Positions 28,804 to 45,216 of a stretch of 64,000 nt of DNA are shown here, piece after piece. Under the pieces are notes generated by a model. That model was not told where the DNA came from, made no database searches, and saw nothing but the letters and a program-made list of their open reading frames with translations. A program made the position numbers and the translations under genes. Source of the stretch: a virus. Numbering within the stretch: the stretch's first letter is position 1; the number at the start of each line of letters is the position of its first letter. The stretch covers positions 40,020 to 104,019 of IMG/VR virus record IMGVR_UViG_3300029267_004179, one strand, 5' to 3'.

Positions 28804-28951
28804 ACAGCTTTGCTGTTCAAACCGGACTTAAAGATGATAAATTGCTTAAAATAGGCTAAATTATGTTTTTTTTGATTATTTGTTAAAATTTATGTAAAAA
28901 TATAAAAATTTTTTATTCAATGATTAGGCGCTGTTATTCAGCGCCTTTTTT
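28804..28951 (+). ncRNA. Short transcription unit ended by a strong terminator (possible small RNA)
   Basis: Between element D and the terminator at 28927-28951 lie about 120 bases with an ACAGC-TTT-GCTGT hairpin at the start and no credible ORF. This would give an RNA of roughly 150 nucleotides if element D is a promoter. Speculative. Confidence 0.35.
28927..28951 (+). terminator. Intrinsic terminator
   Basis: GGCGCTG-TTATT-CAGCGCC stem-loop followed directly by TTTTTT. Strong rho-independent form. Confidence 0.85.
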
Positions 28952-29097
28952 ATTTTCAAAGATAATGAGAGAAAATATATAAAAAAAGTTTTCATAAAAG
29001 CATTATATCATTGTTATCACTTGATAAAAATTTTTACAGTTTTCCGATAATCAATCATAAGCTTGGATTTTAGATGATTATCCGGTTTTACTTTTCC

Positions 29098-29610
29098 GCT
29101 GTATATTATAAAAAGGAACCTAAGTTTTATGATCTTTTACATCGTCGAGTACGTTGAGGGGCTGGCAAGAGGATTGGCCGGATAAAATACCTTATAAAAA
29201 ACACCCCAAGAATTCAAACTCACTTGATGCCATCCGGGAAAAGTAACCAAGCGGGCCATAACTTAACCTTAAATTTTAAGGTTAAGCCTTTCAGGGCTGC
29301 GGAGACGAAATATGGAAGTCTCTTCCTGATAAGCCAAAAATCAGCCAAGAAAACGGGGAAACCCGATAAGGGCTGGGCGCCAAGGTGAAAAATTCATGTT
29401 GACCTATATATCTGCAAACCAAAGATTGGATTTCATCTCCATTATAACCAGCACGAATCAAGTAATGCTGCAGGAATTATCCTTTGGGCGGCATACCGCA
29501 TTGAATCAAGTAGATGTGCAGGAGCATATAGGTCAACAGCAATAAGGGATGATTTATCATCCCAACTAAGCTTTTGTCTTTATATAAAGGACAGAAGTTT
29601 AGTTGGGTTT
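29098..29610 (+). ncRNA. Large structured non-coding RNA candidate
   Basis: About 500 bases with no supported ORF but dense complementary pairs. Seen: 11-bp hairpin CTTAACCTTAA/TTAAGGTTAAG (29262-29286); GAGAC/GTCTC; CAGCC/GGCTG enclosing CGGG-GAAA-CCCG with a GNRA loop; a 12-bp long-range helix GTTGACCTATAT (29398-29409) with ATATAGGTCAAC (29526-29537) closing a multibranch domain that holds two copies of GAATCAAGTA-n-ATG-n-TGCAGGA; a GGGATGA/TCATCCC hairpin (29546-29563); and a ~20-bp terminal hairpin (29563-29605). A TATATTATAAAA promoter-like box lies at ~29103. Size and ornate structure recall the phage ROOL/GOLLD class, but I cannot confirm membership. Confidence 0.6.
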
Positions 29611-29654
29611 ATAAGGCATTTTTATAAAACTTTAACTTTAATTAGGAGGGAATT

Positions 29655-30008
29655 ATGTCTGATAATAAAAATGATATTAGTATAATAGATGCTATAGGTT
29701 CTTTAAGGCCTTTCACAGAAGGTGATTGGCAAGGGTACAGTGGAGCTGAAGGCGACAATCCATTAATTGCTGAAATTGGCAGTTTCATCTTTATTATCGA
29801 TGAAGCTGGCATCCAGGTAGATTATGTCCATGATTTTGATGAAACTGATGAAGATGGAGAACCCATTCTTGGAAGTCCTTGGGATGAGAGGTTTTTGTCC
29901 TTGGGCACTCAGTGTGTTAGCATCGCTGTTTTCTTTGAGATTTTCCGACTTATAAATAGCGAAGGCATCACTATGAGTGATGCCTTGGATAAGCTGAACT
30001 TTAAATAA
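29655..30008 (+). CDS. Acidic protein, unknown
   Basis: 117 residues, acidic (VDYVHDFDETDEDGEPILG), with TTAGGAGGGAATT before ATG. First protein gene after the structured RNA. No motif recognised; no membrane segment. Confidence 0.5.
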   Translation: MSDNKNDISIIDAIGSLRPFTEGDWQGYSGAEGDNPLIAEIGSFIFIIDEAGIQVDYVHDFDETDEDGEPILGSPWDERFLSLGTQCVSIAVFFEIFRLINSEGITMSDALDKLNFK

Positions 30009-30040
30009 TATGAATGATATAAGCAGAAAATGGAGGAGAT

Positions 30041-30259
30041 ATGAGGGAATTTGAGAGGCTGAGCCATATGATGACAGAGGAGTTTCATTTAATAGACTGC
30101 GGAACATTTTATGAGACAACTGATAACAGATTTGTTGGTTACCCGCAAGGGCCAAATCAAAATGATGGGTTGCTTGTGCTTGATCGTAAAATGGATAAGT
30201 ATGTTGGTTTTTTCCAGGACGTGAAAGAAGCCAACTTTGCTGTAAATTTAATTGAATAG
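30041..30259 (+). CDS. Small protein, unknown
   Basis: 72 residues with TGGAGGAGAT before ATG; alpha/beta composition (GFFQDVKEANFAVNLIE). No family recognised. Confidence 0.5.
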   Translation: MREFERLSHMMTEEFHLIDCGTFYETTDNRFVGYPQGPNQNDGLLVLDRKMDKYVGFFQDVKEANFAVNLIE

Positions 30260-30267
30260 GAGGCAAG

Positions 30268-30663
30268 ATGAAATTAAAAAAGAAGACAAGCCCTAAAATC
30301 AGCAAGAAGGAATGGGCAAGGATGCTTGCCCTTGTTGACTCAGCAGCATCTTTAAAAGTTGAGGTTGACAGCCTGAAAAATACTTTGGAGGATATGAAAG
30401 GCACTCTGAAGGAATTTGCAGCTCGTGCCAAAGTAAAGAAAATTAAAAGCAAAAATTATACCGCTGCTTTTAAGGACGGAAAAAAGACAGAGATTGACCC
30501 TGAGCTGTTTTATGATGAGGTAGATGATATTGATGATTTTATTTCGTCAATATCGGTGAAGGTGACTGAGGCAAGGGAAGTATTGTCAGCAAAAGCGATT
30601 GATAAAATTGCATTTGTGGAAGTTAAGCCATATAATTCTGTTTCTTTTAAATTTATCGATTGA
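30268..30663 (+). CDS. Lys-rich helical protein, unknown
   Basis: 131 residues; basic N-terminus, coiled-coil middle (LKVEVDSLKNTLEDMKGTLKEF), then a beta/acidic part. GGAGGCAAG before ATG. The first hammerhead ribozyme follows 27 bases after its stop. Architecture resembles small recombination-accessory proteins of phages but no name can be given. Confidence 0.5.
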   Translation: MKLKKKTSPKISKKEWARMLALVDSAASLKVEVDSLKNTLEDMKGTLKEFAARAKVKKIKSKNYTAAFKDGKKTEIDPELFYDEVDDIDDFISSISVKVTEAREVLSAKAIDKIAFVEVKPYNSVSFKFID

Positions 30664-30689
30664 TGTCTATTTTGAAAGTATTCTGGTTA

Positions 30690-30756
30690 GATAGCACCGA
30701 AACAGCCGCAAGGCTGTCTATCATGGGTGGTTCCATGGTACTGATGAGGTAGCCAA
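30690..30756 (+). ncRNA. Type II hammerhead ribozyme, copy 1
   Basis: Circularly permuted hammerhead core. CGAAA (30698-30702) opens stem III ACAGCC-GCAA-GGCTGT, then the cleavage nucleotide C30718. Stem I is TATCATGG-GTGGTT-CCATGGTA (8 bp with G-U), followed by the invariant CTGATGA at 30741-30747. Open stem II is short (ACC/GGT, possibly extended by GC/GC across a bulged A). Predicted self-cleavage between C30718 and T30719 would split the mRNA between two cistrons. Confidence 0.85.
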
Positions 30757-30845
30757 ATAAAATATAAAGTTTGACAAACTGAAAATAATGTTTAAAACAG
30801 CTTTCGATGGTATTGAACCGCACTATTAATAAAAAGGAGGATAAA

Positions 30846-31055
30846 ATGGTCTTCGCAACTTTTAATACGATCAATGGGAAAAGGTCTGGAAGGGTCATTC
30901 AAGCCCATTCCAAGTCCATTATTGTCCAACTGTGTTCTTTTAAAAGGAACAAGATTACCAGGATGCATCAGATCATCCCGGAAAAAGTAATCACTCGGCA
31001 TCTGGAAAAACACAGAGTAAAAATATATGATGAGAAGGTGATCCCCATCAACTAA
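30846..31055 (+). CDS. Small basic protein between ribozymes
   Basis: 69 residues starting MVFATFNTINGKRSGRV, with AAAGGAGGATAAA before ATG; a longer frame from 30807 lacks a site. Basic, beta-rich (KSIIVQLCSFKRNKITRMH), perhaps nucleic-acid binding. Flanked on both sides by hammerhead ribozymes, so its mRNA would be released as a separate piece. Confidence 0.55.
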   Translation: MVFATFNTINGKRSGRVIQAHSKSIIVQLCSFKRNKITRMHQIIPEKVITRHLEKHRVKIYDEKVIPIN

Positions 31056-31119
31056 AACACCGAAACCGGGCTTGTCCCGGTCGTGGTAGGGTTGTGCCTA
31101 CCGCCTGATGATGTAGCTG
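31052..31119 (+). ncRNA. Type II hammerhead ribozyme, copy 2
   Basis: Starts at the stop codon of the upstream cistron. CGAAA (31061-31065), stem III ACCGGG-CTTGT-CCCGGT, cleavage C31082, stem I GTGGTAGG-GTTGTG-CCTACCGC, core CTGATGA 31105-31111. Stem III differs from copy 1 at several positions while staying paired. Position 10.1 is T rather than G and stem II is weak, so this copy may cleave less well. Confidence 0.8.
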
Positions 31120-31143
31120 AATGAATATAAAAGGGAGGATATT

Positions 31144-31316
31144 ATGAAAAAACGAAGGCTATATGTGGTTAGAGGGTCCGAAGACGGCATCGTAGGTGTT
31201 TACACCAACATCAAGCTTGCTTGGGAAAAGCCATTAAGGGCTTGAATGGTCATACCGGAAGTTATGCGGAAGCCGTGGTAATGCTTAAAAAATCACATTA
31301 TTTCACAGTTGAGTAA
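31144..31316 (+). CDS. Small protein requiring a -1 frameshift
   Basis: ATG 31144 follows AAGGGAGGATATT. Frame 0 reads MKKRRLYVVRGSEDGIVGVY... IKLAWE and then stops at 31243. In the -1 frame from the GGGAAAAG run (~31230) the sequence continues KAIKGLNGHTGSYAEAVVML to TAA 31314-31316, clearly the natural continuation (about 57 residues). One A seems to be missing, or ribosomes slip. Lies between ribozyme copies 2 and 3. Confidence 0.45.
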
Positions 31317-31406
31317 AAAGTCCCTGAAATGGGAGTCAAAGCAATATACTATATCAGTCTTCATTATTTAAATGAATAAGTTTAAAAAACTATAAAGGAG
31401 GTAAAA

Positions 31407-31637
31407 ATGGCATTCAGAATCCTAATTCATGATGATAAAATTGGTGGAGTCGAAGACGTTCTGGAGATGGATTTGGACGTGGCACTAACTCCCAAAGGAC
31501 AACTCACCGCATGGCTTCATCGACGCATTGTCAATGAAATCAAAAAAGTGGCAGAAGTGGCCGAAATGAGTTCAAACCAAAAATGGTTTAAAAAGGCAAG
31601 AAGGACAATATTGATTGAACCGGCAAGCGGAAAATAA
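31407..31637 (+). CDS. Small protein, unknown
   Basis: 76 residues, AAAGGAGGTAAAA before ATG. Contains WLHRRIVNEIKKVAEVAEM helix. The stop codon abuts ribozyme copy 3. No family recognised. Confidence 0.5.
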   Translation: MAFRILIHDDKIGGVEDVLEMDLDVALTPKGQLTAWLHRRIVNEIKKVAEVAEMSSNQKWFKKARRTILIEPASGK

Positions 31638-31700
31638 ACACCGAAACGGCCGCAAGGCCGTCGTGGTAGGGTTGTGCCTACCGCCTGATGAGGTAGCCAA
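31634..31700 (+). ncRNA. Type II hammerhead ribozyme, copy 3
   Basis: CGAAA (31642-31646), stem III ACGGCC-GCAA-GGCCGT, cleavage C31662, stem I identical to copy 2 (GTGGTAGG/CCTACCGC), core CTGATGA 31685-31691 and GGTAGCC as in copy 1. Stem III shows compensatory change against copies 1 and 2. Cleavage would separate the upstream mini-gene from the AAA ATPase mRNA, which starts 71 bases later. Confidence 0.87.
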
Positions 31701-31732
31701 ATAAAATACAAACAATATAAAAGGAGGATATT

Positions 31733-33148
31733 ATGAAGAAGGCTGATGACATCACAAGTTATTTGAGAGCTGGATTCAGTGCTTTCTGGGTAACTACTCA
31801 AGAGCCAAGAAGGGCTGTTGAGGTGCTGACTGAGAAGATTGAGCAATTTGTCCGGAAGGATGGTGGCAAATACAGGATTGGCAATTGGAACTGTCTTGGT
31901 GGTGATCCTGTAAAGGCCTTGTCTATCAATGGTGATTTTAATGTAAAATTCTTGATGAACTATCATTGGTTCATCAAGAAACCACCTGTTGTGCAGACAA
32001 TTCAGGATAACATAGAAGTCTGGAAAAATCATGGCAATGCTATCATAGTTGTTTCTCCTGTGATGGATATCCCCATTGAGCTTGAAAAGGATTTTGTACC
32101 TTTGTCATTGGAGCTGCCTGATGAAAAGGCCATTAAAAAGTCTTTCCAATACATTTCTGAGAGTACAAACGGGGCTGTTAAAGTGCCAGATGGGACTGAT
32201 TTTGATAAGCTTGTGTCTGCCTCAAAAGGGCTTACACAGCTGGAATTAGAAAACACATTGGCCTTGTCTGTTGTGAAGAAAAGAAATTTTGATAGTGAGG
32301 TCATTTCTGATCATAAAGCCAGCATCGTTGAAAAAAGTGGACTTTTGGAGATAGTTAAGCCAACTATTACATTTGATGATGTGTGTGGTTATGACCAGAT
32401 TAAACAGTTTGTCCTTTCTACTATCCGCAAGCCTGAAGCAAAGGGCATCTTAATTCTTGGTCCACCTGGATGTGGTAAAACGATGTTCATGAATGCTCTT
32501 GTCGGCACTACCGGGAAAATAGGACTTAACCTGAATTTTGGGAAGATGTTCTCAAAATATCAGGGTGAGACTGACCAGAACATCGAAGCAGCTATAAAGG
32601 TGATTGAGGCCATCGGTGACTGTATTGTGATGGTAGATGAGTTTGAGAAGCAATTTGCCGGTGCTGCTTCTACCGGTGAAACAGATAGTGGTGTGACCAG
32701 AAGGGCAACTGGCCGATGGTTGAGGTTTATGCAAGAAAGGCCAAAAGGTGTTTATATCATCGGCACATGCAACTCATTTAGAGGCATGCCGCCTGAGTAT
32801 CTGAGGCCTGGAAGATGGGACAGCAGCCCTTTCTTCATTGATCTTCCGAGTCAAGGCGAAAAAATGGAGATCATGGCATATTATTTGGGGAAATACAGGC
32901 TGGCTGTCGATGGGAGAACACCAAGACTGCCGGCCATGGATAAATGGACTGGAGCTGAAATTGAAGCGTGCTGCCGTAATGCTTCAATGATGGAGTGCTC
33001 TGTGGCTGATGCATCAAAGTTCGTTTTGCCTCAGGCAAAAACTATGGAAGATGAAATTTCCGAGCTGAGGACATGGTCGAAAGGCAGGACAATTCCAGCA
33101 ACCATTGTGATAAAGAAAAAGAAAAAGAAAAGGGTAATTGACACATAG
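31733..33148 (+). CDS. Ycf46-like AAA+ ATPase
   Basis: 471 residues. N-terminal domain (~1-200) begins with RAGFSAFWVTTQEPRRAVEVL, the pattern of Ycf46-type proteins. AAA+ core: Walker A GPPGCGKT (~243-250), Walker B IVMVDEFEK (~298), and a second region of homology with PEYLRPGRWDS. C-terminus ends in Lys repeats. Ycf46 is encoded in red-algal plastids and cyanobacteria and its role is poorly known. Here it heads a set with DUF2997, Ycf35-like and DUF3150 genes, suggesting they act together. Strong AAAGGAGG site. Confidence 0.8.
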   Translation: MKKADDITSYLRAGFSAFWVTTQEPRRAVEVLTEKIEQFVRKDGGKYRIGNWNCLGGDPVKALSINGDFNVKFLMNYHWFIKKPPVVQTIQDNIEVWKNHGNAIIVVSPVMDIPIELEKDFVPLSLELPDEKAIKKSFQYISESTNGAVKVPDGTDFDKLVSASKGLTQLELENTLALSVVKKRNFDSEVISDHKASIVEKSGLLEIVKPTITFDDVCGYDQIKQFVLSTIRKPEAKGILILGPPGCGKTMFMNALVGTTGKIGLNLNFGKMFSKYQGETDQNIEAAIKVIEAIGDCIVMVDEFEKQFAGAASTGETDSGVTRRATGRWLRFMQERPKGVYIIGTCNSFRGMPPEYLRPGRWDSSPFFIDLPSQGEKMEIMAYYLGKYRLAVDGRTPRLPAMDKWTGAEIEACCRNASMMECSVADASKFVLPQAKTMEDEISELRTWSKGRTIPATIVIKKKKKKRVIDT

Positions 33149-33157
33149 TTACAGTTA

Positions 33158-33230
33158 GGTGACCAGGTTTTCCTGGTCACCTGTTAAGGTAGCAAGCTGA
33201 AATCTTTGTTCTTGCTACCTTAACAGGTGA
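33158..33230 (+). promoter_or_regulatory. Mutually exclusive hairpins
   Basis: Hairpin 1: GGTGACCAGG-TTTT-CCTGGTCACC (33158-33181). Hairpin 2: a perfect 20-bp stem, 33177-33196 with 33211-33230, 14-base loop. They share TCACC, so the full forms cannot coexist in one RNA. No U-tract follows. May control expression or stability between the ATPase and downstream genes. Confidence 0.6.
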
Positions 33231-33274
33231 TAGCTGTTTACTATCAACACTTATTCATATAAAATGGAGGGATT

Positions 33275-33475
33275 ATGGCTAAAAAAGTGGAGATTATTCT
33301 TGGCAAAGACGGCTCTGTAAAGATTGAGGCCTTTGGGTTTAAAGGCTCATCTTGCGAAGAAGCTGTGGAATTTTTGAAAAAGACATTGGGTGATCCTGAA
33401 ACGCACGATTTGAAATCCTCCTATTATGAGGATGATTGTTTAGTTAATGGGCTGCCCAGCGGTTATTGCGGTTAA
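33275..33475 (+). CDS. DUF2997 family protein
   Basis: 66 residues. GKDGSVKIEAFGFKGSSCEEAVEFLKKTLG matches the DUF2997 pattern (dG-V-x-I-E-A-x-G-F-x-G-x-x-C). This family co-occurs with DUF1257/Ycf35 in cyanobacteria. ATGGAGGGATT precedes the start. Function unknown. Confidence 0.7.
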   Translation: MAKKVEIILGKDGSVKIEAFGFKGSSCEEAVEFLKKTLGDPETHDLKSSYYEDDCLVNGLPSGYCG

Positions 33476-33502
33476 TGCTTGACTATTAATTGGAGGGACA
33501 AT

Positions 33503-33895
33503 ATGAGCCATATTAGCACATACAAAGCAAAAATTAAGGACATCGATGCTTTTATTCAAACACTTTCTGATGCCGGATATGCATGGCGTCAAGGGGATTT
33601 GACAGTCAAGCAGTTTGGCCGTAACTGGATAAAGTGTCATACTGCTTTCAAACTGCCAGGCTGGCAGTATGAGATTGCAATAAACAATGAAGGTGAGCTG
33701 CTCTATGATCACTTTGGCAGCAAGCCTTCAGTGGTTGTCAATGGCAAATCCGTTAGAACAATGGACATTTTAGGGAAGACAATCCAAGATTATAATGAGC
33801 AATCTATTGTGTCGCATGCATGGATGGAATGTGATAATGTTACCACTGAAGATTTGGAAGGTGGTGACAAAAGGGTTGTTCTTGAATGGCTGTAA
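33503..33895 (+). CDS. Ycf35/DUF1257 family protein
   Basis: 130 residues from ATG 33503 (TTGGAGGGACAAT upstream), beginning MSHISTYKAKIKDIDAFIQTL, the hallmark N-terminus of DUF1257/Ycf35 proteins. Directly follows DUF2997, as in cyanobacteria. Biochemical role unknown. Confidence 0.75.
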   Translation: MSHISTYKAKIKDIDAFIQTLSDAGYAWRQGDLTVKQFGRNWIKCHTAFKLPGWQYEIAINNEGELLYDHFGSKPSVVVNGKSVRTMDILGKTIQDYNEQSIVSHAWMECDNVTTEDLEGGDKRVVLEWL

Positions 33896-33942
33896 TGGAT
33901 GTCTTATAGCTGTGAATGTTTCAGATCGGAATGGAGGGTAAA

Positions 33943-34860
33943 ATGAAGAGAATCAGAAGAACTCAGGTGATGGAGAAGTTTGATCTTTTTGAAAGAGGGG
34001 TGCTTATTACCTTGGACACGAGATGTTGGGGAGCATCAGCCAAGGTGGATGACCTGACGATGAAAGGCCTTTTGAAGGAAGATAAGGCTATGTTAGCTGA
34101 TGAGATAGTTGCAGTTCAATCTCTTGTGCCTGACAAGTCAAAGCTTGCTTACATATGGCATGTCCGTGACGAGGCAAGGCGATTTGCCCAAACCAATTCG
34201 ATGCCTTCAACTATTCGTGGTCACATGTTTATTCCGAAGGATATGATTGAGTATGTTGACCATGGGCTGGCTGACCGGGAAAGAAGATTCTGGATGGGTG
34301 TGGATGAATTTCTGTTGGAATATGAAGGGCTGAGACTGAAGAAGCAAATTGAAAGCCCAGACTTGTATGATCAGTCAAAATATCCTGATGCAAATAGGAT
34401 GCGACAGCGGTTCAAGTTCAGATGGACATTCCGGATGTTTGATGTGCCAAGTTCTGAAACAGGGTTATTATCGCCGGAAATGTACAAGGCTGAAGTCAAA
34501 AAATTCAAGCAGGATATGGTTGATGCCAGAGACAGTATCATTTCCATAATCTCAAAAGAGTTTTTGGAAAGGATTGATTCTTTGAGGAAGCAGTGCAGCG
34601 GTGATAAGATTAGCACAGCAACTGTTGACGGGCTGAATAATTTTCTTGAAAAGTTTGATAATGTTTGGGGCGGATTCTTTGCTCATAAGCAGCTCAAGAG
34701 CATGATCAAGGATGTTAAAGCATACATGGCCGGAACAGAAGCAGATATGCTCCGGTATGATGAATCATTCAGGTCAATGGTTGGGAAGAAAATGGCTGAA
34801 GTTGGGAAGGACTTCAAAGCTGCCGGTGGTGCCCGTATCGGCAGAAAGCTGGACATATGA
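33943..34860 (+). CDS. DUF3150 family protein
   Basis: 305 residues from ATG 33943 (TGGAGGGTAAA). Features of DUF3150: GVLITLDTRCWGASAKV near the start, a LVPDKSKL motif, STIRGHMFIPKDMIEYVD, and a long helical remainder. Found in phages and some bacteria with AAA ATPases; exact role unknown. The last four bases overlap the sigma-like gene. Confidence 0.65.
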   Translation: MKRIRRTQVMEKFDLFERGVLITLDTRCWGASAKVDDLTMKGLLKEDKAMLADEIVAVQSLVPDKSKLAYIWHVRDEARRFAQTNSMPSTIRGHMFIPKDMIEYVDHGLADRERRFWMGVDEFLLEYEGLRLKKQIESPDLYDQSKYPDANRMRQRFKFRWTFRMFDVPSSETGLLSPEMYKAEVKKFKQDMVDARDSIISIISKEFLERIDSLRKQCSGDKISTATVDGLNNFLEKFDNVWGGFFAHKQLKSMIKDVKAYMAGTEADMLRYDESFRSMVGKKMAEVGKDFKAAGGARIGRKLDI

Positions 34861-36128
34861 GTGCGATGAAACCAGTTGTTCCTGGATTGGATAGGATGAT
34901 CTATAAGATAGCCCAATTCTGGATCAAATTCATTCCGAACCGGTCCTGTTTAGAGTTTGAGGATTTGGTTCAGGAGTGCTATCTGGAGCATGTTAAGGCA
35001 CAGAAAAGGTTTGACGAGTCAAAAGGGGTTAAATATACCACCTATCTTTATAAGGCTTTGTGGTGGCGGTGTTCAGCTATAGCCAAAACAGAGCTGAAAT
35101 ATAAAAATAGGGAGTTTGACAACCCATTGCCTCAGAAACCTTCTGTGCCTGAGGATGATTATCTTGTTTATGAGGGCATTTGGGCATTATCACTTCTTAG
35201 CAAGTCCTTTGCCGACATGATAATTAACGGTATTCCTGACACGCTTTTTAAACATCTTCGTCAGCATGCTGAGGATATCAAGGAAAGGAATGGCTGGAAG
35301 AATGGGTTTAGGACTTTTAGACTAAATAAGACTATTGTTGAAAGATTTTTTGGAATATCTATCAGCAAACTGAGGCACTGTTACTATAATTATAATAGAG
35401 ATGATTATGAAGTTAACTTTTTAACAATGGAGGGGTTGAAAATGGAAGAAAAAAGATTAAAGGGTTTTGCCAGCGCAGTTGGAATTTCATGGGATGATTC
35501 TGTGGACATGCAAGAACAGATTTTAGATGCCATAGATGATATGGGTGAGAAGGAGTGGAAGGAACTTCCTGAAAACATCCGTGCCTGGTCGAATAAGAAA
35601 AACAAAGAGGCTGCCGCCGCCGCAAAGGCAAGCAAGCCGACAAAAGCCAAGGACAAAGATGAGCTGAAAAAGGCCAAAGACGGCGCCAAGGAAAAGGCTG
35701 AAAAGAAAAAGGCTGTTAAAAAGCAGTCAAAGGAATATCCTACCAGATTTAAAGAGGGCACAAATGGCCATCAAATCACTGCGTTTGTTGAGGAAGCTGG
35801 CAGTGATGGGATCAGCATCACTTCTCTTATCAAGAAATGTGAAAAGGCAAAGGTGAACAGCCCTAATGTTTCAGGAAGGGTGCGGCATGTGATGCGTATG
35901 TGCACAACGATTGAAGTTGATCCACATTGCGGTCTTCTGCGTAAAGATAATGATTTATTCTTTTGGGTTGGCCCGAAGTCTGAAACTGATGCCGAGAAGC
36001 CGGCAAAACCGGCAAAGAAAGAAAAGAAAGAAGAGAAAAAACCGGCAAAGAAAGAAAAGAAAGAAAAGAAAGAAGAGAAAAAACCGGCAAAGAAAGAAAA
36101 GAAAACGAAAAAATTCAAAAAGAAGTAA
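34857..36128 (+). CDS. Sigma-70 region 2-like protein with Lys-rich C-terminal extension
   Basis: 423 residues. Residues ~34-72 (FEDLVQECYLEHVKAQKRFD, then SKGVKYTTYLYKALWWR) match sigma-70 region 2, the core-binding and -10-recognition helices. A region 4-like helix-turn-helix may lie near FFGISISKLRH (~165-175). The rest (residues ~196-423) is a separate-looking module, with a winged-helix-like TNGHQITAFVEEAGSDGISITSLIKK and an H1-like PAKKEKK tail. An internal GGAGGGG site and in-frame ATG at 35442 could give a separate C-terminal product. Candidate phage transcription specificity factor. Confidence 0.6.
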   Translation: MSAMKPVVPGLDRMIYKIAQFWIKFIPNRSCLEFEDLVQECYLEHVKAQKRFDESKGVKYTTYLYKALWWRCSAIAKTELKYKNREFDNPLPQKPSVPEDDYLVYEGIWALSLLSKSFADMIINGIPDTLFKHLRQHAEDIKERNGWKNGFRTFRLNKTIVERFFGISISKLRHCYYNYNRDDYEVNFLTMEGLKMEEKRLKGFASAVGISWDDSVDMQEQILDAIDDMGEKEWKELPENIRAWSNKKNKEAAAAAKASKPTKAKDKDELKKAKDGAKEKAEKKKAVKKQSKEYPTRFKEGTNGHQITAFVEEAGSDGISITSLIKKCEKAKVNSPNVSGRVRHVMRMCTTIEVDPHCGLLRKDNDLFFWVGPKSETDAEKPAKPAKKEKKEEKKPAKKEKKEKKEEKKPAKKEKKTKKFKKK

Positions 36129-36138
36129 CAACTATGTT

Positions 36139-36188
36139 AAGGCCCACCAAGGGGATGAGTTGAGACTCCCTTTGGTGGGCCTTTTTTT
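36139..36188 (+). terminator. Intrinsic terminator
   Basis: AAGGCCCACCAAGGGGA with TCCCTTTGGTGGGCCTT, followed by a T7 run. Closes the 29.6-36.1 kb operon. A-rich bases upstream would give a weaker terminator for minus-strand transcription. Confidence 0.85.
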
Positions 36189-37421: not shown

Positions 37422-38198
37422 ATGAAGGTACATCTACTCAATTACACAAATGAGGCAAAGGACTTGCTTATTTTTAGCAAACGCACAAGGCATATGGCAA
37501 ATGCAGACGCACTTGAGAAAGTGAAGAGCATGACAGAAGCTGAGAAGGACAAAGAACTTGATTATGTTTTCAACACAATTGGCAGCAGTTGGGAATTTGT
37601 CTCCTATACTTTTTTGATTGAGGACGTCACCAGGGCGTTTACTCATCAGCTGGTAAGGCATAGGGTTGGGACGGCGTTTGCACAACAGGCAATGAGGGTG
37701 GCAAGGATGGAAGACTTTGGCTATCTTGTGCCTCCTAAGTTTAGTTTAGCTGCTGTTGAGTCTTATTCTAACATTATGAGCAATATTCAGGAAGGATACG
37801 ATGCCCTTCTTGTGGAGTTTGATGCTGATCAGCAAGATGCCAGAGGAGTACTCCCAACAAATATTCATACAAACATTTTGTTCAAGGTCAATTTAAGAGC
37901 TATTGCTGATATTTCTCATATTCGGCTTTGTATTAGAGCACAAGGGGAGTTTCAGAATGTCGCTTTTAGGATGAAAAAGTTGATTGAATCAGTTCATCCT
38001 TGGGCAGGAAGAGTACTTGGCCCTGAGTGTATAGTGAATTGGAGATGTGCTTTCCCGAAGTATAAACAGTGTCCTATTAAGGAGATGCATCTGTGGCTGA
38101 ATGGTCCTGCGGATGAAGAGATTGCTGAAATGAATTTTCAGTGGGAGTCAATTACAGGGTACGACCCTCAGCCAGATATAGTTAAATCATGGGAATAG
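37422..38198 (+). CDS. thyX: Flavin-dependent thymidylate synthase (ThyX)
   Basis: 258 residues. Makes dTMP from dUMP using FADH2, NADPH and methylene-tetrahydrofolate. The ThyX motif appears as RHRVGTAFAQQAMR near residue 79 (family RHRxxSxxxxSxR; the second Ser positions are Thr and Ala-like here). GAGGAGGGAAG precedes ATG. Variation at the motif, together with neighbouring radical SAM and FAD genes, leaves open activity on a modified pyrimidine. Confidence 0.85.
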   Translation: MKVHLLNYTNEAKDLLIFSKRTRHMANADALEKVKSMTEAEKDKELDYVFNTIGSSWEFVSYTFLIEDVTRAFTHQLVRHRVGTAFAQQAMRVARMEDFGYLVPPKFSLAAVESYSNIMSNIQEGYDALLVEFDADQQDARGVLPTNIHTNILFKVNLRAIADISHIRLCIRAQGEFQNVAFRMKKLIESVHPWAGRVLGPECIVNWRCAFPKYKQCPIKEMHLWLNGPADEEIAEMNFQWESITGYDPQPDIVKSWE

Positions 38199-39272: not shown

Positions 39273-40325
39273 ATGGATGACTATCGATCTTATAAAAATG
39301 ACAAGGTTGTCAGGTTTGTTGATTCACTTAAACACAGCTGGAGGATATTTCCACCATCACTTCAGATAGGCATAACTGATTCCTGTTTTAATAAATGCCC
39401 TATGTGTGGGCATTGGAGGAGAAAGAAGAAATACAGCCTTAACACGGAGAGGCTTATTAGGTTTCTTGAAATGGGGAAGAAGTTGGGGCTTGAATCTGTG
39501 GGTTATAGTGGAGGTGATCCACTTGCATATGCCAAAATAAATGATGTTATGAAATGGCATATTGGCAACAATGTGTCTTTCGGCATAGTCACTGCAGGGT
39601 ATGTACCTTACTGTGTTGAATATAGCCTTTTGAGGTGTGCAAGTTGGGTCAGAGTCAGCCTTGATGCTGTTGGTGAAGAAAGGTATAGGAAATTTAGAGG
39701 GTCTGTTGCATTTTCGGATGTTGACAGGTCTATTAATGACATGCTGGATGCCAGGGTAAGGCTTGGTGTTGGAATAACCTTGCATTCAGGCAACTCTGAT
39801 TATGTTGGTGAAGTGCTTGACTATTGCAAATCAAAAGGGATAGAAGAAGTAAGAGTCTGGGTTGTAAGAAGGCATTCAAAGATGGACATGTCTTTTAAAC
39901 AGAGGATGAAGCTTGCTTCAACACTTGCTAAGTATTTGGAAGATGATTACTATTCAATCACAGACACCAACTTTTCTACTACCATCGACACATTGACATC
40001 AGATAATATTGATGTGATAGGCTTTGACCGGTGCTATGCATGTTTGTATCAGCTGTTCATAGATTCTGATGGCAGTATCTATGCTTGCTGTACTGCTGCA
40101 GGAGACACTGAATCTAAAAGCAGAATGGAGCCGTTTTCTAACATATATTTTGATATGCCGATTGTTAGTAGTCTTGGTTGGGAGAGGATTGCAAAGAAGG
40201 TCCGGGCATTTCACTCAAAGGAGTATAGTGATCTTCCTGATGTTTGCAAAGATGAATGTATAGTCAGACATCGCATAGCTAATAACATAGCCATGAAGAG
40301 CTGGCACAGACAGGATTTTCAATAA
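39273..40325 (+). CDS. Radical SAM enzyme with SPASM-like C-terminal cysteines
   Basis: 350 residues. C38-x3-C42-x2-C45 (DSCFNKCPMCGHW) binds the SAM [4Fe-4S] cluster; YSGGDPL is the GGE-like SAM motif. C-terminal Cys set (CYACLYQLFIDSDGSIYACC, VCKDEC) suggests an auxiliary cluster as in SPASM/twitch proteins. GAAGGAG site upstream. Radical SAM enzymes are rare in phages; with ThyX and FAD neighbours it may act on a nucleotide or DNA base (inference). Stop overlaps the next start. Confidence 0.8.
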   Translation: MDDYRSYKNDKVVRFVDSLKHSWRIFPPSLQIGITDSCFNKCPMCGHWRRKKKYSLNTERLIRFLEMGKKLGLESVGYSGGDPLAYAKINDVMKWHIGNNVSFGIVTAGYVPYCVEYSLLRCASWVRVSLDAVGEERYRKFRGSVAFSDVDRSINDMLDARVRLGVGITLHSGNSDYVGEVLDYCKSKGIEEVRVWVVRRHSKMDMSFKQRMKLASTLAKYLEDDYYSITDTNFSTTIDTLTSDNIDVIGFDRCYACLYQLFIDSDGSIYACCTAAGDTESKSRMEPFSNIYFDMPIVSSLGWERIAKKVRAFHSKEYSDLPDVCKDECIVRHRIANNIAMKSWHRQDFQ

Positions 40326-41122: not shown

Positions 41123-41501
41123 TAATCAGTTTACAGTAGCTGTAGATTTTGATGGCGTTATAAATAATTATAGCCGATATAAAGGCAAAGGTGTATTTGA
41201 AGAGCCTGTGCCTGGAGTTGTTGAAGCATTTAGAACTATGAAGGCTGCAGGTTGGACTATAATAATTAATACAACAAGGTCGGAAACCTGGCTTATTGAG
41301 GAATATTGCAAGAAACATGGAATTTTGTTTGACTACATAAACCATAACCCTGCTAACAATGTGCTACATTTGTCTCCTACAAAAGTCATAGCAGATGTGT
41401 ATGTAGATGACAGGAATGTAAGGTTTGATGGCAATTGGTGTAAGGCTATAGATGAAATAAGGAATTTTAAGCCTTGGTATAGGAGGAAAGATGAGGAATA
41501 A
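41115..41501 (+). CDS. HAD-superfamily phosphatase-like protein
   Basis: 128 residues from ATG 41115 (GAAAGG upstream), overlapping both neighbours. VAVDFDGVINNY carries the DxD nucleophile pair (D11, D13), INTTRS the motif II Thr, and VYVDDRNVRF the C-terminal acidic motif. Small HAD enzymes of this form dephosphorylate nucleotides or nucleic-acid ends. Substrate unknown. Confidence 0.7.
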   Translation: MTNNQFTVAVDFDGVINNYSRYKGKGVFEEPVPGVVEAFRTMKAAGWTIIINTTRSETWLIEEYCKKHGILFDYINHNPANNVLHLSPTKVIADVYVDDRNVRFDGNWCKAIDEIRNFKPWYRRKDEE

Positions 41502-44500
41502 TCAGTGGTGCCATTTGCATTTACATACTCAATATTCTGTTCTTGATGGATACGGATCAGCGGAACAATATGCTGAGAGGGCAAAAGAGATAGGCTTTAC
41601 CCATATGGCTATTACTGATCATGGCAATGTGGATGGAGCAATACAGTTTCAAAAGGCTTGTGAGGCTAATGATATAACTCCTATTATTGGTTGTGAGGCA
41701 TATATTGTTCCTGATATGTCCAACCGTAGTAAAGAGAAAAGATATCACATTTCATTGTTCGCCATGAATAGTAATGGTTGGCAAAATATTCTCAAGATGC
41801 TTACTGTTGCGAACATGCAAGGCTTTTATTATAGGCCAAGGATTGATCCTGAGCTATTGCTTGAGCACTGCGACGGAGTACTTGTCTCAACTGCTTGTTG
41901 CTATGGTTATTTAAGAATGCCTAATGGGGCTGATCTTATTAAGGCGCTTAATGAAGTGACGGAAGTTGTGCTTGAAGTTATGCCTGTTGATATGAAGGAG
42001 CAAAGAGAAGTTAACAGATGGTGTCTTGACTTGTCCGAATCCACTGGTATCCCAATCATAGCCACTAATGATTGCCATTATATTCTTAAAGACCAAAGCA
42101 AACTTCAGGAAACACTTCTTGCTGTGCAAAGGAAAGTCAAATGGAATGACCCGAACAGATGGAAATTCGATATAGATGACTTATACTTAAAGACTGCTGA
42201 TGAGATGGTTCCAGGCTTGGTTAAACAAGGAGTAGAAAGGGGCTTGGCAGAGCAAGTATTGAGGAATACAATGCTCATAGCTGAGAAATGCAGTTTCAGA
42301 ATAGAACAAGTGCCTGTTACTTTGCCTGATATCCACATCCCAGGCTATGAAGAACTACCTGAAGATGACCAGCTGACACATGTTACTTTAGATGGCCTCA
42401 ATAGACTATCAGAAGTTCATAGCTATATTGATGATGATATTGATTCCTACTATGATAGGGTTGAAGATGAGCTTTATCATATCATCAATCTTGGTTTTTC
42501 CAGATATTTTTTGATAGTTTGGGAGCTGATTGACTGGTGCAAGAAAAACAACATACTTACTGGGCCGGGAAGAGGTAGTGTAGGTGGCAGTCTTGTTGCT
42601 TATTGTCTTGGCATTACTGCTGTTGATCCTATTAAGTATGGACTTGTATTCACAAGGTTCATTTCACCTGCAAGAATAGATTTGCCGGATATAGATATGG
42701 ATTTCGAAGATAGGCATAGAGGGAAGATCAGGAAGCATCTTGAGTATAAGTATGGCAAATACAATGTTATAGGTTTGTCTACCTTTGCGAAAATGAATGG
42801 TAGGTCGTGTTTAAGGGATGTGGCAAGAGTATTTGATGTTCCATTAGTCGATGTAGGGGCTGCTGCAAAATCTATAGTTGTTAGATCAGTTGGTGATTTT
42901 AGATCATCTTTTACTATCACAGATGCGTTTGATACTTTTGAAGATGGTAAGAAATTTAAAAAGAAGTATCCAGAAGTGACAAGGATATCTATAGCTATGG
43001 AGGGTCAAATCCGTGGGACAGGCAAACATGCTGCTGCTATGTGTGTTTCAGCTAATGATGTAAGATCAGGTGTGCATAATAGTCTTTCCTATAGATCAAA
43101 AGAACTTCTTGCAAATTGGGGCAAGGAAGATGCCGAGTATATGGGGCTGATGAAGCTTGATGTGCTTGGGCTAAATGCTCTTACAGTGTTGGCTGAGTCA
43201 ATAAGCCTTGTTAAGGATAGACATGGCATAGAAGTTGATCTTGAGACTATACCTTTGGATGATGAGAAGGTTTATTCAGAGTTTTCAAGAGGCAATACAG
43301 TTGGTGTGTTCCAGTTTGCTGGCCAGGGAGCAATTAAACTGTGCCGAGAAATTGGAGTGGAGAATTTTGACGAACTTGTAGCTGTAAATGCTTTGAATAG
43401 GCCTGGTCCTTTGAGGTCAGGAATGACTACTGATTATACAAATATCAAACATGGGAAGAAGAAAAAGCCAAATCTTCATCCCATAATGAATAGGATAACA
43501 GAAAACACTCAAGGCATGGTGATATATCAAGAGCAGATTATGTTTATTATTTCAGAACTTGCTGGGTTGCCTTGGAGAACTGCGGATGTTGTTCGGAAAG
43601 TAATATCCAAAGGAAAAGGTGAAGAGCAGTTCATGAAATTTAAGGATATGTTTGTTGAGGGATGTGTGAATAAAGGTACTATATCAAGGAAGGAAGCAGA
43701 AAAGGCTTTCAAATCTTATAAACATGCCGGATCATACATGTTCAACAAATCTCATGCAGTTGAATACAGCCTTATTGCTTACTGGGAAGCATGGTTCAAA
43801 ACTCATTATCCGGTAGAATATATGGTTGGAATATTATCTTATGGCCCAACTCATAAAGATAAAAAGCATATTCATGTTAATGAAGCCAAAAGGCTTGGAG
43901 TTAAGCTTGCACTACCTAACATAAACAAATCTATGGCAAAGTTATGGACAGCGGATGAAGAGGGCAATTTGAGGATACCACTTTGTGAAATTAAAGGCAT
44001 CGGTCCTGCTGCTGCAAATGTTATTGTGTCTGAAAGAAAAAAGAATGGTGATTATACATCAAAAAATAATTTTGAGTCAAGGGTTGAAAAGAGGAGATGT
44101 AATAAAAGGGTAAAAGAGCTGCTTGATAAGGTCGGTGTTTGGGAAGAAGATAGTGATGCACTCCTTGATGATAAAAGGCTTGAGGAATTATCTCTTTATT
44201 TTGATTTTGACCTTTCTAATGATCCTATGTTCAGATATAGGAAAGCAGTCAAAAAGATTTCAGAGCATGTAGACTTGGTCAAGCTTAAAGGTGTCAGCAC
44301 CAAACAGGTCAAGGAGAAGAGTTTTTATTTTGGATATATAGCAAGTATCAAGTATGGGTATAAGGAAAAAGTAGGGCAAAACAAGAAAGATGATGCTGGC
44401 CTTGGTGGCGTGTATGCCTATTTTGAGGATAGCACTAATTCAACTATGTTGACTTTTAATCCAGAGCTATACAAGAATAGAAAGGATGAGATAGAACATT

Positions 44501-45216
44501 GTGCTGAGAGGTGGGCTCTTGTCAGGGCAAATTCGCCTTTCGGAACAGACAGCCTTTACTGCAATGAAATCTGGTTTGCTGATGATATTTTATCTGGAAA
44601 ATTGGATGATTCAGGGATAGCTTTGGCAGATGAATATGATTACAGCAAATCAGATTTGGTAGTAGATGGGGTTGCTTTATCCGACTGTCAAGCTTGTCAG
44701 TTTAGGCAGGAGTGTAAAGCTCCTGTTTATCCTACCTATGGAGATGTCAATGCAATGATAATTGGTGAGGCTCCAGGCAAAGATGAGGACAGAGTTGGCA
44801 AAGGGTTTGTTGGCGGCAGCGGTAACTTATTGTTTGATAAGAATCTGCACAAGATTGGTGTTAGAAGGGAGCACTGCCATATAACAAATGTGAATAAGTG
44901 TTGGCCGAGTAAATCAAGGACTCCGAAGAAAACTCAGGTGAATAAATGCAGGAAATGGCTTGACAGAGAAATTGAGATAGTAAAGCCATTTGTTATACTT
45001 GCACTTGGTAATACATGCATGAAGTATTTCCTTGGAGAAGATTCTGGCATTATGGCCAAGAATGCATCTACTGAATGGAATGATAGGTATAATTGCTGGA
45101 TATGTTGGGGCATTCATCCTGCTTCTGTTCTCAGGTCACCAGAAAATAGAACAATGTTCAAACAGGCATTGGACAATTTTGCTCATGTGTTTAGCACCAT
45201 AGGGTTTGGTTTATAA
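41491..45216 (+). CDS. dnaE: DNA polymerase III alpha subunit (DnaE-type) fused to uracil-DNA glycosylase
   Basis: 1241 residues. PHP domain at the N-terminus (HLHTQYSVLDGYG, ITDHGN). Polymerase core with PDIDMDFED near residue 399 carrying two catalytic Asp. Helix-hairpin-helix IKGIGPAAANVIV (~835) and an OB-like section follow. The C-terminal ~170 residues are a family 4-like UDG: CQACQFRQEC cluster ligands, motif A GEAPGKDEDRVGKGFVGGSG (~1091) and motif B HPAS (~1208). The fusion would couple synthesis to uracil removal. Likely the main replicase of the phage. Confidence 0.9.
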   Translation: MRNNQWCHLHLHTQYSVLDGYGSAEQYAERAKEIGFTHMAITDHGNVDGAIQFQKACEANDITPIIGCEAYIVPDMSNRSKEKRYHISLFAMNSNGWQNILKMLTVANMQGFYYRPRIDPELLLEHCDGVLVSTACCYGYLRMPNGADLIKALNEVTEVVLEVMPVDMKEQREVNRWCLDLSESTGIPIIATNDCHYILKDQSKLQETLLAVQRKVKWNDPNRWKFDIDDLYLKTADEMVPGLVKQGVERGLAEQVLRNTMLIAEKCSFRIEQVPVTLPDIHIPGYEELPEDDQLTHVTLDGLNRLSEVHSYIDDDIDSYYDRVEDELYHIINLGFSRYFLIVWELIDWCKKNNILTGPGRGSVGGSLVAYCLGITAVDPIKYGLVFTRFISPARIDLPDIDMDFEDRHRGKIRKHLEYKYGKYNVIGLSTFAKMNGRSCLRDVARVFDVPLVDVGAAAKSIVVRSVGDFRSSFTITDAFDTFEDGKKFKKKYPEVTRISIAMEGQIRGTGKHAAAMCVSANDVRSGVHNSLSYRSKELLANWGKEDAEYMGLMKLDVLGLNALTVLAESISLVKDRHGIEVDLETIPLDDEKVYSEFSRGNTVGVFQFAGQGAIKLCREIGVENFDELVAVNALNRPGPLRSGMTTDYTNIKHGKKKKPNLHPIMNRITENTQGMVIYQEQIMFIISELAGLPWRTADVVRKVISKGKGEEQFMKFKDMFVEGCVNKGTISRKEAEKAFKSYKHAGSYMFNKSHAVEYSLIAYWEAWFKTHYPVEYMVGILSYGPTHKDKKHIHVNEAKRLGVKLALPNINKSMAKLWTADEEGNLRIPLCEIKGIGPAAANVIVSERKKNGDYTSKNNFESRVEKRRCNKRVKELLDKVGVWEEDSDALLDDKRLEELSLYFDFDLSNDPMFRYRKAVKKISEHVDLVKLKGVSTKQVKEKSFYFGYIASIKYGYKEKVGQNKKDDAGLGGVYAYFEDSTNSTMLTFNPELYKNRKDEIEHCAERWALVRANSPFGTDSLYCNEIWFADDILSGKLDDSGIALADEYDYSKSDLVVDGVALSDCQACQFRQECKAPVYPTYGDVNAMIIGEAPGKDEDRVGKGFVGGSGNLLFDKNLHKIGVRREHCHITNVNKCWPSKSRTPKKTQVNKCRKWLDREIEIVKPFVILALGNTCMKYFLGEDSGIMAKNASTEWNDRYNCWICWGIHPASVLRSPENRTMFKQALDNFAHVFSTIGFGL

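What the first reader, a model, noticed from the sequence alone, without database searches (positions are those of the whole stretch)
30690..31700. Three intercistronic type II hammerhead ribozymes in one phage operon
Each copy has CGAAA, a stable stem III, the UC cleavage site, an 8-bp stem I and CUGAUGA in type II order. Stem III sequences differ among the copies yet stay paired (ACAGCC/GGCUGU, ACCGGG/CCCGGU, ACGGCC/GGCCGU), and stem I also covaries between copy 1 and copies 2-3. Two begin at a stop codon, so self-cleavage would cut the mRNA into single-gene pieces ahead of a Ycf46-like ATPase. Hammerheads are known in some phages; a tandem processing series like this would be a distinctive post-transcriptional system.
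Basis: partly seen in the sequence, partly recalled or inferred. Interest (0 to 1): 0.92.

Follow-up and report, generated by a model that had tools for sequence, protein, structure and literature searches.

The report
Self-cutting RNAs between phage genes
This phage has three small self-cutting RNAs (type II hammerhead ribozymes) in the gaps between its genes; related phages put the same or unrelated self-cutting RNAs, or strong RNA hairpins, at the matching gaps, which suggests that the phage message is cut into separate gene messages by its own RNA.

Summary
Three type II hammerheads lie at 30695-30758, 31058-31122 and 31639-31702. Copy 2 is the weakest: stem II opens with a U-C mismatch and its tertiary pairing is poor.

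The idea is not new. Perreault et al. 2011 described clustered hammerheads, type II among them, in prophage operons, proposed processing to single-gene mRNAs, and showed a triple set cleaving in E. coli.

Comparison takes it further. In seven other IMG/VR contigs (two nearly identical), homologues of the AAA ATPase behind copy 3 also have a type II hammerhead directly upstream. These contigs carry arrays of up to 15 copies. One interleaves pistol ribozymes with the hammerheads; another phage interleaves twisters. At ribozyme-free junctions of comparable length, 58 of 62 gaps fold into strong hairpins that mostly lack a terminator tail. In front of DUF2997, some relatives have a hammerhead where this phage has a perfect 15-18-bp hairpin.

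Best reading: intercistronic RNA cutting is the conserved trait and the cutter is interchangeable, a largely protein-free counterpart of T7's RNase III sites. Cleavage itself is untested.

The parts
30695..30758 (+). Hammerhead copy 1 (type II): stem II ACC/GGU, stem III ACAGCC-GCAA-GGCUGU, predicted cleavage after C30718, stem I 8-9 bp, CUGAUGA, loop I UGGU pairing with tail GCCA
   Evidence: RF02276 59.4 bits, E 6.5e-11; model R1 78.9 bits
31058..31122 (+). Hammerhead copy 2 (type II), 2 nt after a stop codon; U10.1-C11.1 mismatch in stem II and weak tertiary pairing; predicted cleavage after C31082
   Evidence: RF02276 43.4 bits, E 1e-06; R1 64.8 bits; descriptor reads stem II as 0 bp
31639..31702 (+). 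Hammerhead copy 3 (type II), 1 nt after a stop codon, 30 nt before the ATPase start; predicted cleavage after C31662
   Evidence: RF02276 49.4 bits, E 2.7e-08; R1 77 bits
30268..30663 (+). 131-aa ORF upstream of copy 1, no Pfam or PHROG match
30846..31055 (+). 69-aa ORF between copies 1 and 2
31144..31317 (+). Short gene after copy 2 whose frame breaks after 33 codons; another frame is open to about 31317
   Evidence: sequence
31407..31637 (+). 76-aa ORF upstream of copy 3
31733..33148 (+). AAA ATPase (471 aa); homologues in other array phages also preceded by a type II hammerhead
   Evidence: PF00004 E 3.3e-18, phrog_8638 E 6.9e-60
33156..33245 (+). Ribozyme-free junction with a strong hairpin region: a hairpin of up to about 10 bp followed by a perfect 15-18-bp hairpin (boundaries shift between MFE and centroid), no U tract; relatives have a hammerhead at the matching junction; candidate RNase III-type site
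   Evidence: fold z -6.22 for 33149-33274, sequence
33275..33475 (+). DUF2997 protein (66 aa), conserved in the array phages
   Evidence: PF11211 E 1.6e-12
33943..34860 (+). DUF3150 protein, conserved in the array phages, where it follows a hammerhead
   Evidence: PF11348 E 4.3e-10
36139..36188 (+). Terminator-like hairpin with a T run, likely end of the transcription unit
   Evidence: sequence and fold

Best explanation
The three elements are type II hammerhead ribozymes that cut the phage's polycistronic RNA in cis, probably during transcription, at the junctions before the genes at 30846, 31144 and 31733. The type II layout splits the ribozyme so that both new ends keep a closed hairpin: the upstream mRNA ends in the stem III hairpin with a 2',3'-cyclic phosphate, and the downstream mRNA begins with a 5'-hydroxyl and the stem I hairpin ahead of its own Shine-Dalgarno site. 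This should isolate and stabilise each mRNA and set its yield independently, as RNase III does for phage T7 RNAs. In this phage family the cut junction is the conserved trait and the cutter is interchangeable: hammerhead, pistol, or a long hairpin probably cut by host RNase III. Shown by sequence: the folds, covariation, placement, conservation and substitution at matching junctions. Inferred: cleavage, end protection, its effect on expression, and RNase III action on the hairpins.
For: Rfam and own-model scores. On 118 related copies the 17 stem pairs form in 97.0% of cells, covariation score 0.899 against 0.209 in shuffles and at most 0.151 in slid controls. Loop I/tail pairing exceeds re-dealt tails (mean 4.18 against 3.08, sd 0.08). 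Of 103 distinct viral copies, 90 lie between two ORFs; median gap from stop codon to stem II is 1 nt; 96 of 97 downstream starts have a Shine-Dalgarno-like motif. Among 11 loci found by ATPase similarity, without reference to hammerheads, 7 have a hammerhead directly upstream, as does the window. One of these operons mixes in pistol and another phage twister-P5. Ribozyme-free gaps of 60-160 nt in the arrays: 58 of 62 fold with z below -2, only 2 have a T-rich tail, against 3 of 10 such gaps elsewhere in this phage. Published: a triple hammerhead set of A. tumefaciens cleaves in E. coli (PMC3088659); [quoted passage not shown]
Against: No RNA data: cleavage is not shown for any copy here. Copy 2 has a mismatch at one of the most conserved base pairs, and copies 2-3 have imperfect tertiary contacts, so they may be slow. 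Of 18 consensus-matching hammerheads tested in PMC3088659, 4 showed no cleavage. The window has only three ribozyme junctions, and copy 1 is 31 nt from its stop codon. Most copies were found by a pattern that contains the core, so their core conservation is not independent. The stop-codon closeness could partly reflect compact genomes. The gene caller used for junctions is a simple script.
Confidence: 0.77

Rival explanations
1. The hammerheads are translation-gated switches. They sit so close to the stop codon that a terminating ribosome covers stem II and the GAA core, so a junction is cut only when the upstream gene is poorly translated.
For: Median stop-to-stem II gap of 1 nt, most frequent value 0, in 103 copies; copies 2 and 3 here are 2 and 1 nt after the stop.
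Against: The other elements are also placed just after stops, as expected for any element in a compact genome; copy 1 is 31 nt away; hammerheads can cleave before the first ribosome arrives.
Confidence: 0.1
2. The copies are selfish or drifting repeats that spread between genes by duplication and are tolerated because they do little.
For: Copies 2 and 3 share an identical stem I; L086 carries several nearly identical copies; hammerheads elsewhere ride on repeats (PMC3088659).
Against: Strong compensatory change in all stems; sense orientation before Shine-Dalgarno sites; the ATPase junction keeps a hammerhead although the ATPases are only about 43-67% identical; unrelated ribozymes and hairpins occupy equivalent junctions.
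Confidence: 0.07
3. The sequences act mainly as uncut mRNA structures, for example hairpins that block exonucleases or tune translation, and cleavage is incidental.
For: Stem III and stem I hairpins are stable (about -9 to -13 kcal/mol here); other junctions carry hairpins without a known ribozyme.
Against: The unpaired catalytic core and the loop I/tail contact, needed for cleavage and not for hairpins, are conserved; pistol and twister, which share only self-cleavage, appear in the same kind of place.
Confidence: 0.06

Closest known systems
Clustered hammerheads, type II included, in prophages (Perreault et al. 2011, PMC3088659)
   Different: There the flanked genes were not constant; here the ATPase junction is conserved across phages, arrays reach about 15 copies, and other element types replace hammerheads
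RNase III processing sites of phage T7 early mRNA (PMC4858673)
   Same: Cuts a polycistronic phage RNA between genes into mono- and dicistronic mRNAs
   Different: T7 uses a host protein on RNA hairpins; here the RNA should cut itself, with hairpins at some junctions
Association of twister, pistol and other self-cleaving ribozymes with phage genes and with each other (Weinberg et al. 2015, as summarised in PMC10085705 and PMC4604425)
   Same: Different ribozyme classes found near phage genes and near other ribozymes
   Different: Here they are resolved to successive junctions of single operons, interleaved with hammerheads

Membership tests
Hammerhead ribozyme, type II (RF02276) | Covariance model match above the curated cut-off | tested here: met
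   59.4, 43.4 and 49.4 bits against 37
Hammerhead ribozyme, type II (RF02276) | Invariant core CUGANGA, GAA, A15.1-U16.1 and H17 | tested here: met
   All three copies, read from the sequence
Hammerhead ribozyme, type II (RF02276) | Stem II closed by a 10.1-11.1 pair | tested here: inconclusive
   Met in copies 1 and 3 (G-C); U-C mismatch in copy 2. A U-U start is known in active hammerheads (PMC3088659)
Hammerhead ribozyme, type II (RF02276) | Loop I to 3' tail pseudoknot (common, not universal) | tested here: inconclusive
   Copy 1 UGGU/GCCA; copy 3 lower quality and copy 2 weak
Hammerhead ribozyme, type II (RF02276) | Self-cleavage with Mg2+ | not testable with these tools
   Needs in vitro transcription
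RNase III processing site (for the 33156-33245 hairpins) | Long double-stranded stem between genes, not a terminator | tested here: met
   15-18-bp perfect stem, z -6.22, no U tract
RNase III processing site (for the 33156-33245 hairpins) | Cleavage by RNase III | not testable with these tools
   Needs RNA or enzyme assay

The most novel reading that the evidence does not exclude
A phage family cuts nearly every junction of an operon by interchangeable intercistronic RNA elements: type II hammerhead, pistol, and RNase III-like hairpins, with twister in another phage. Some elements that Rfam does not recognise (about 15-17 copies in L149 and about 13 in L147, each of two hairpins with a possible pseudoknot to the 5' strand) may be a new self-cleaving ribozyme class.
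Probability: 0.2. Interest if true: 0.88.

Novelty: new member of a known kind. Interest (0 to 1): 0.6.

Why it matters
Why phages carry small ribozymes, and why different classes sit near each other, was still stated as unknown in 2023 (PMC10085705). Junction-by-junction substitution of hammerhead, pistol and hairpin elements in related operons points to one answer, cutting the mRNA between genes, and gives defined loci on which to test it. The unclassified elements in L147 and L149 are concrete candidates for a ribozyme search.

Tried and rejected
Distant DNA matches in annotated phages: none for 30041-33148, the leader region or the L137 array, so no cultured relative was found that way. 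The ATPase alone as a single sequence found one distant relative without hammerheads (L003). DNA polymerase search: no relative. The 17-mer search gave mostly chance hits: 7 of the 10 contigs it reached carry no RF02276 match. The genome contigs pattern scan added one structurally valid distinct copy (L108). Hatchet and twister-sister do not match the unclassified elements. My first hand-written structure for the L149 alignment was in the wrong register and was dropped for the RNAalifold result.

Full report
OBSERVATION. The window lies in a 104-kb virus record. Three type II hammerheads are present at 30695-30758, 31058-31122 and 31639-31702, at 59.4, 43.4 and 49.4 bits against a gathering score of 37. 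The fast whole-window scan reported only two. A descriptor scan with loose stems gives three in the window and two in twenty shuffles. The predicted cleavage sites follow C30718, C31082 and C31662 (sequence). Copy 2 has U10.1 against C11.1 and a weak loop-tail contact; a U-U start at that pair is known in active hammerheads (PMC3088659), so copy 2 may still be active but slow. No further copy was found in the rest of the record.

SURROUNDINGS. Genes from about 29655 to 36128 run in one direction, bounded by terminator-like hairpins at 28926-28946 and 36139-36188 (sequence). Copies 2 and 3 start 2 and 1 nt after stop codons, copy 1 31 nt after; each is followed by a gene with a Shine-Dalgarno motif. 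The gene behind copy 3 is an AAA ATPase (PF00004, phrog_8638), followed by DUF2997 and, further on, DUF3150.

IS IT A REAL STRUCTURE. A model built from 16 copies found 118 matches in the 39 sources searched; stem pairs form in 97.0% of cells with far more two-sided change than shuffles or slid controls. The alignment is fitted to the structure, so this leans towards it, but the slid controls fall to 36-44% paired. The loop I/tail contact is specific to its own tail: mean score 4.18 against 3.08 (sd 0.08) with tails re-dealt.

PLACEMENT ELSEWHERE. Among 103 distinct copies in viral contigs, 90 lie between two ORFs, the median gap from stop codon to stem II is 1 nt, and 96 of 97 downstream starts have a Shine-Dalgarno-like motif. 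Arrays reach 15 copies in L042, 14 in L140, 9 in L137, 8 in L139 and 7 in L138, at least. In L072, six hammerheads and four twister-P5 ribozymes share one operon.

CONSERVED JUNCTION. Proteins next to hammerheads cluster around the ATPase: the window's ATPase is 45-51% identical over the aligned part to those of L042, L058, L071 and L081. A search by ATPase similarity alone returned 11 loci. In seven (L141, L142, L143, L145, L146, L150, L151; L142 and L143 look nearly identical) a type II hammerhead lies directly upstream. L151 also carries five pistol ribozymes. The other four (L144, L147, L148, L149) have no Rfam ribozyme match, yet their junctions hold regular gaps of roughly 70-135 nt with strong stems.

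SUBSTITUTION. DUF2997 follows a hammerhead in L058, L071/L086 and L081, but a strong hairpin in the window and in L042. The window hairpin region folds at z -6.22 with no U tract; the exact stem boundaries differ between the minimum-energy and centroid structures. Over the array loci, 58 of 62 ribozyme-free gaps of 60-160 nt have z below -2 and 49 have stems of 15 or more pairs, while only 2 have a T-rich tail. Elsewhere in this phage 3 of 10 such gaps reach z below -2. The gene calls come from a simple script and array sizes are lower bounds, since several contigs are fragments.

MECHANISM. The geometry of the type II permutation leaves a hairpin at both new ends; in type I the downstream product, and in type III the upstream product, lacks one (this follows from the known hammerhead layout). 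I infer that cutting isolates each mRNA and protects its ends. The nearest functional parallel is T7, whose early RNA is cut by host RNase III at five sites into mono- and dicistronic mRNAs (PMC4858673). That hairpin junctions here are RNase III sites is inference.

PRIOR KNOWLEDGE. Perreault et al. 2011 described clusters of hammerheads in prophages, proposed the same role, and showed a triple set cleaving in E. coli (PMC3088659). Hammerhead and twister ribozymes are known to be enriched near phage genes and near other ribozymes, with the reason called unknown (PMC10085705). I found no paper in the held library that describes dense mixed arrays or hairpin substitution, but most subscription papers and all bioRxiv preprints are missing from it.

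OPEN LEAD. The L149 elements share conserved sequence around a variable hairpin plus a second hairpin; in L147, 16 of 18 consensus pairs show two-sided change. The loop of the second hairpin and the 5' strand look complementary (my reading). They match neither hatchet nor twister-sister. They could be RNase III sites or an undescribed ribozyme.

Noticed in passing
28947-29654: A leader region of about 700 nt with no clear gene between a terminator-like hairpin and the operon; 29040-29545 folds somewhat better than shuffles (z -2.66) and has long-range pairing; no Rfam match above cut-off. Possible large structured RNA.
   Followed up: partly
41491-45216: DNA polymerase III alpha subunit (PHP, NTPase and finger domains) with a uracil-DNA glycosylase domain at its C-terminal end in one ORF.
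   Followed up: partly
31144-31317: Short gene after copy 2 with a broken frame: 33 codons, then another frame open to about 31317; may be an assembly error in an A run or a real frameshift.
   Followed up: no
L149:339-9640 and L147:305-7944: About 15-17 and 13 copies of unclassified structured elements between genes, with a possible pseudoknot to the 5' strand that includes the stop codon.
   Followed up: partly
L072:5295-10821: Operon whose junctions hold type II hammerhead and twister-P5 ribozymes in turn.
   Followed up: partly
L068, L075, L082: Copies with an extra base between CUGANGA and stem II (CUGAUGA-U-GG or CUGAUGA-A-GG), a possible core variant.
   Followed up: no
L079:13474-13575: tmRNA match reported over the whole 374-position model in only 102 bases; odd, not examined.
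   Followed up: no
34857-36128: Sigma-70 region 2 match followed by a long lysine-rich tail with repeats.
   Followed up: no
37422-38198 and 39273-40325: ThyX-type thymidylate synthase and a radical SAM protein.
   Followed up: no
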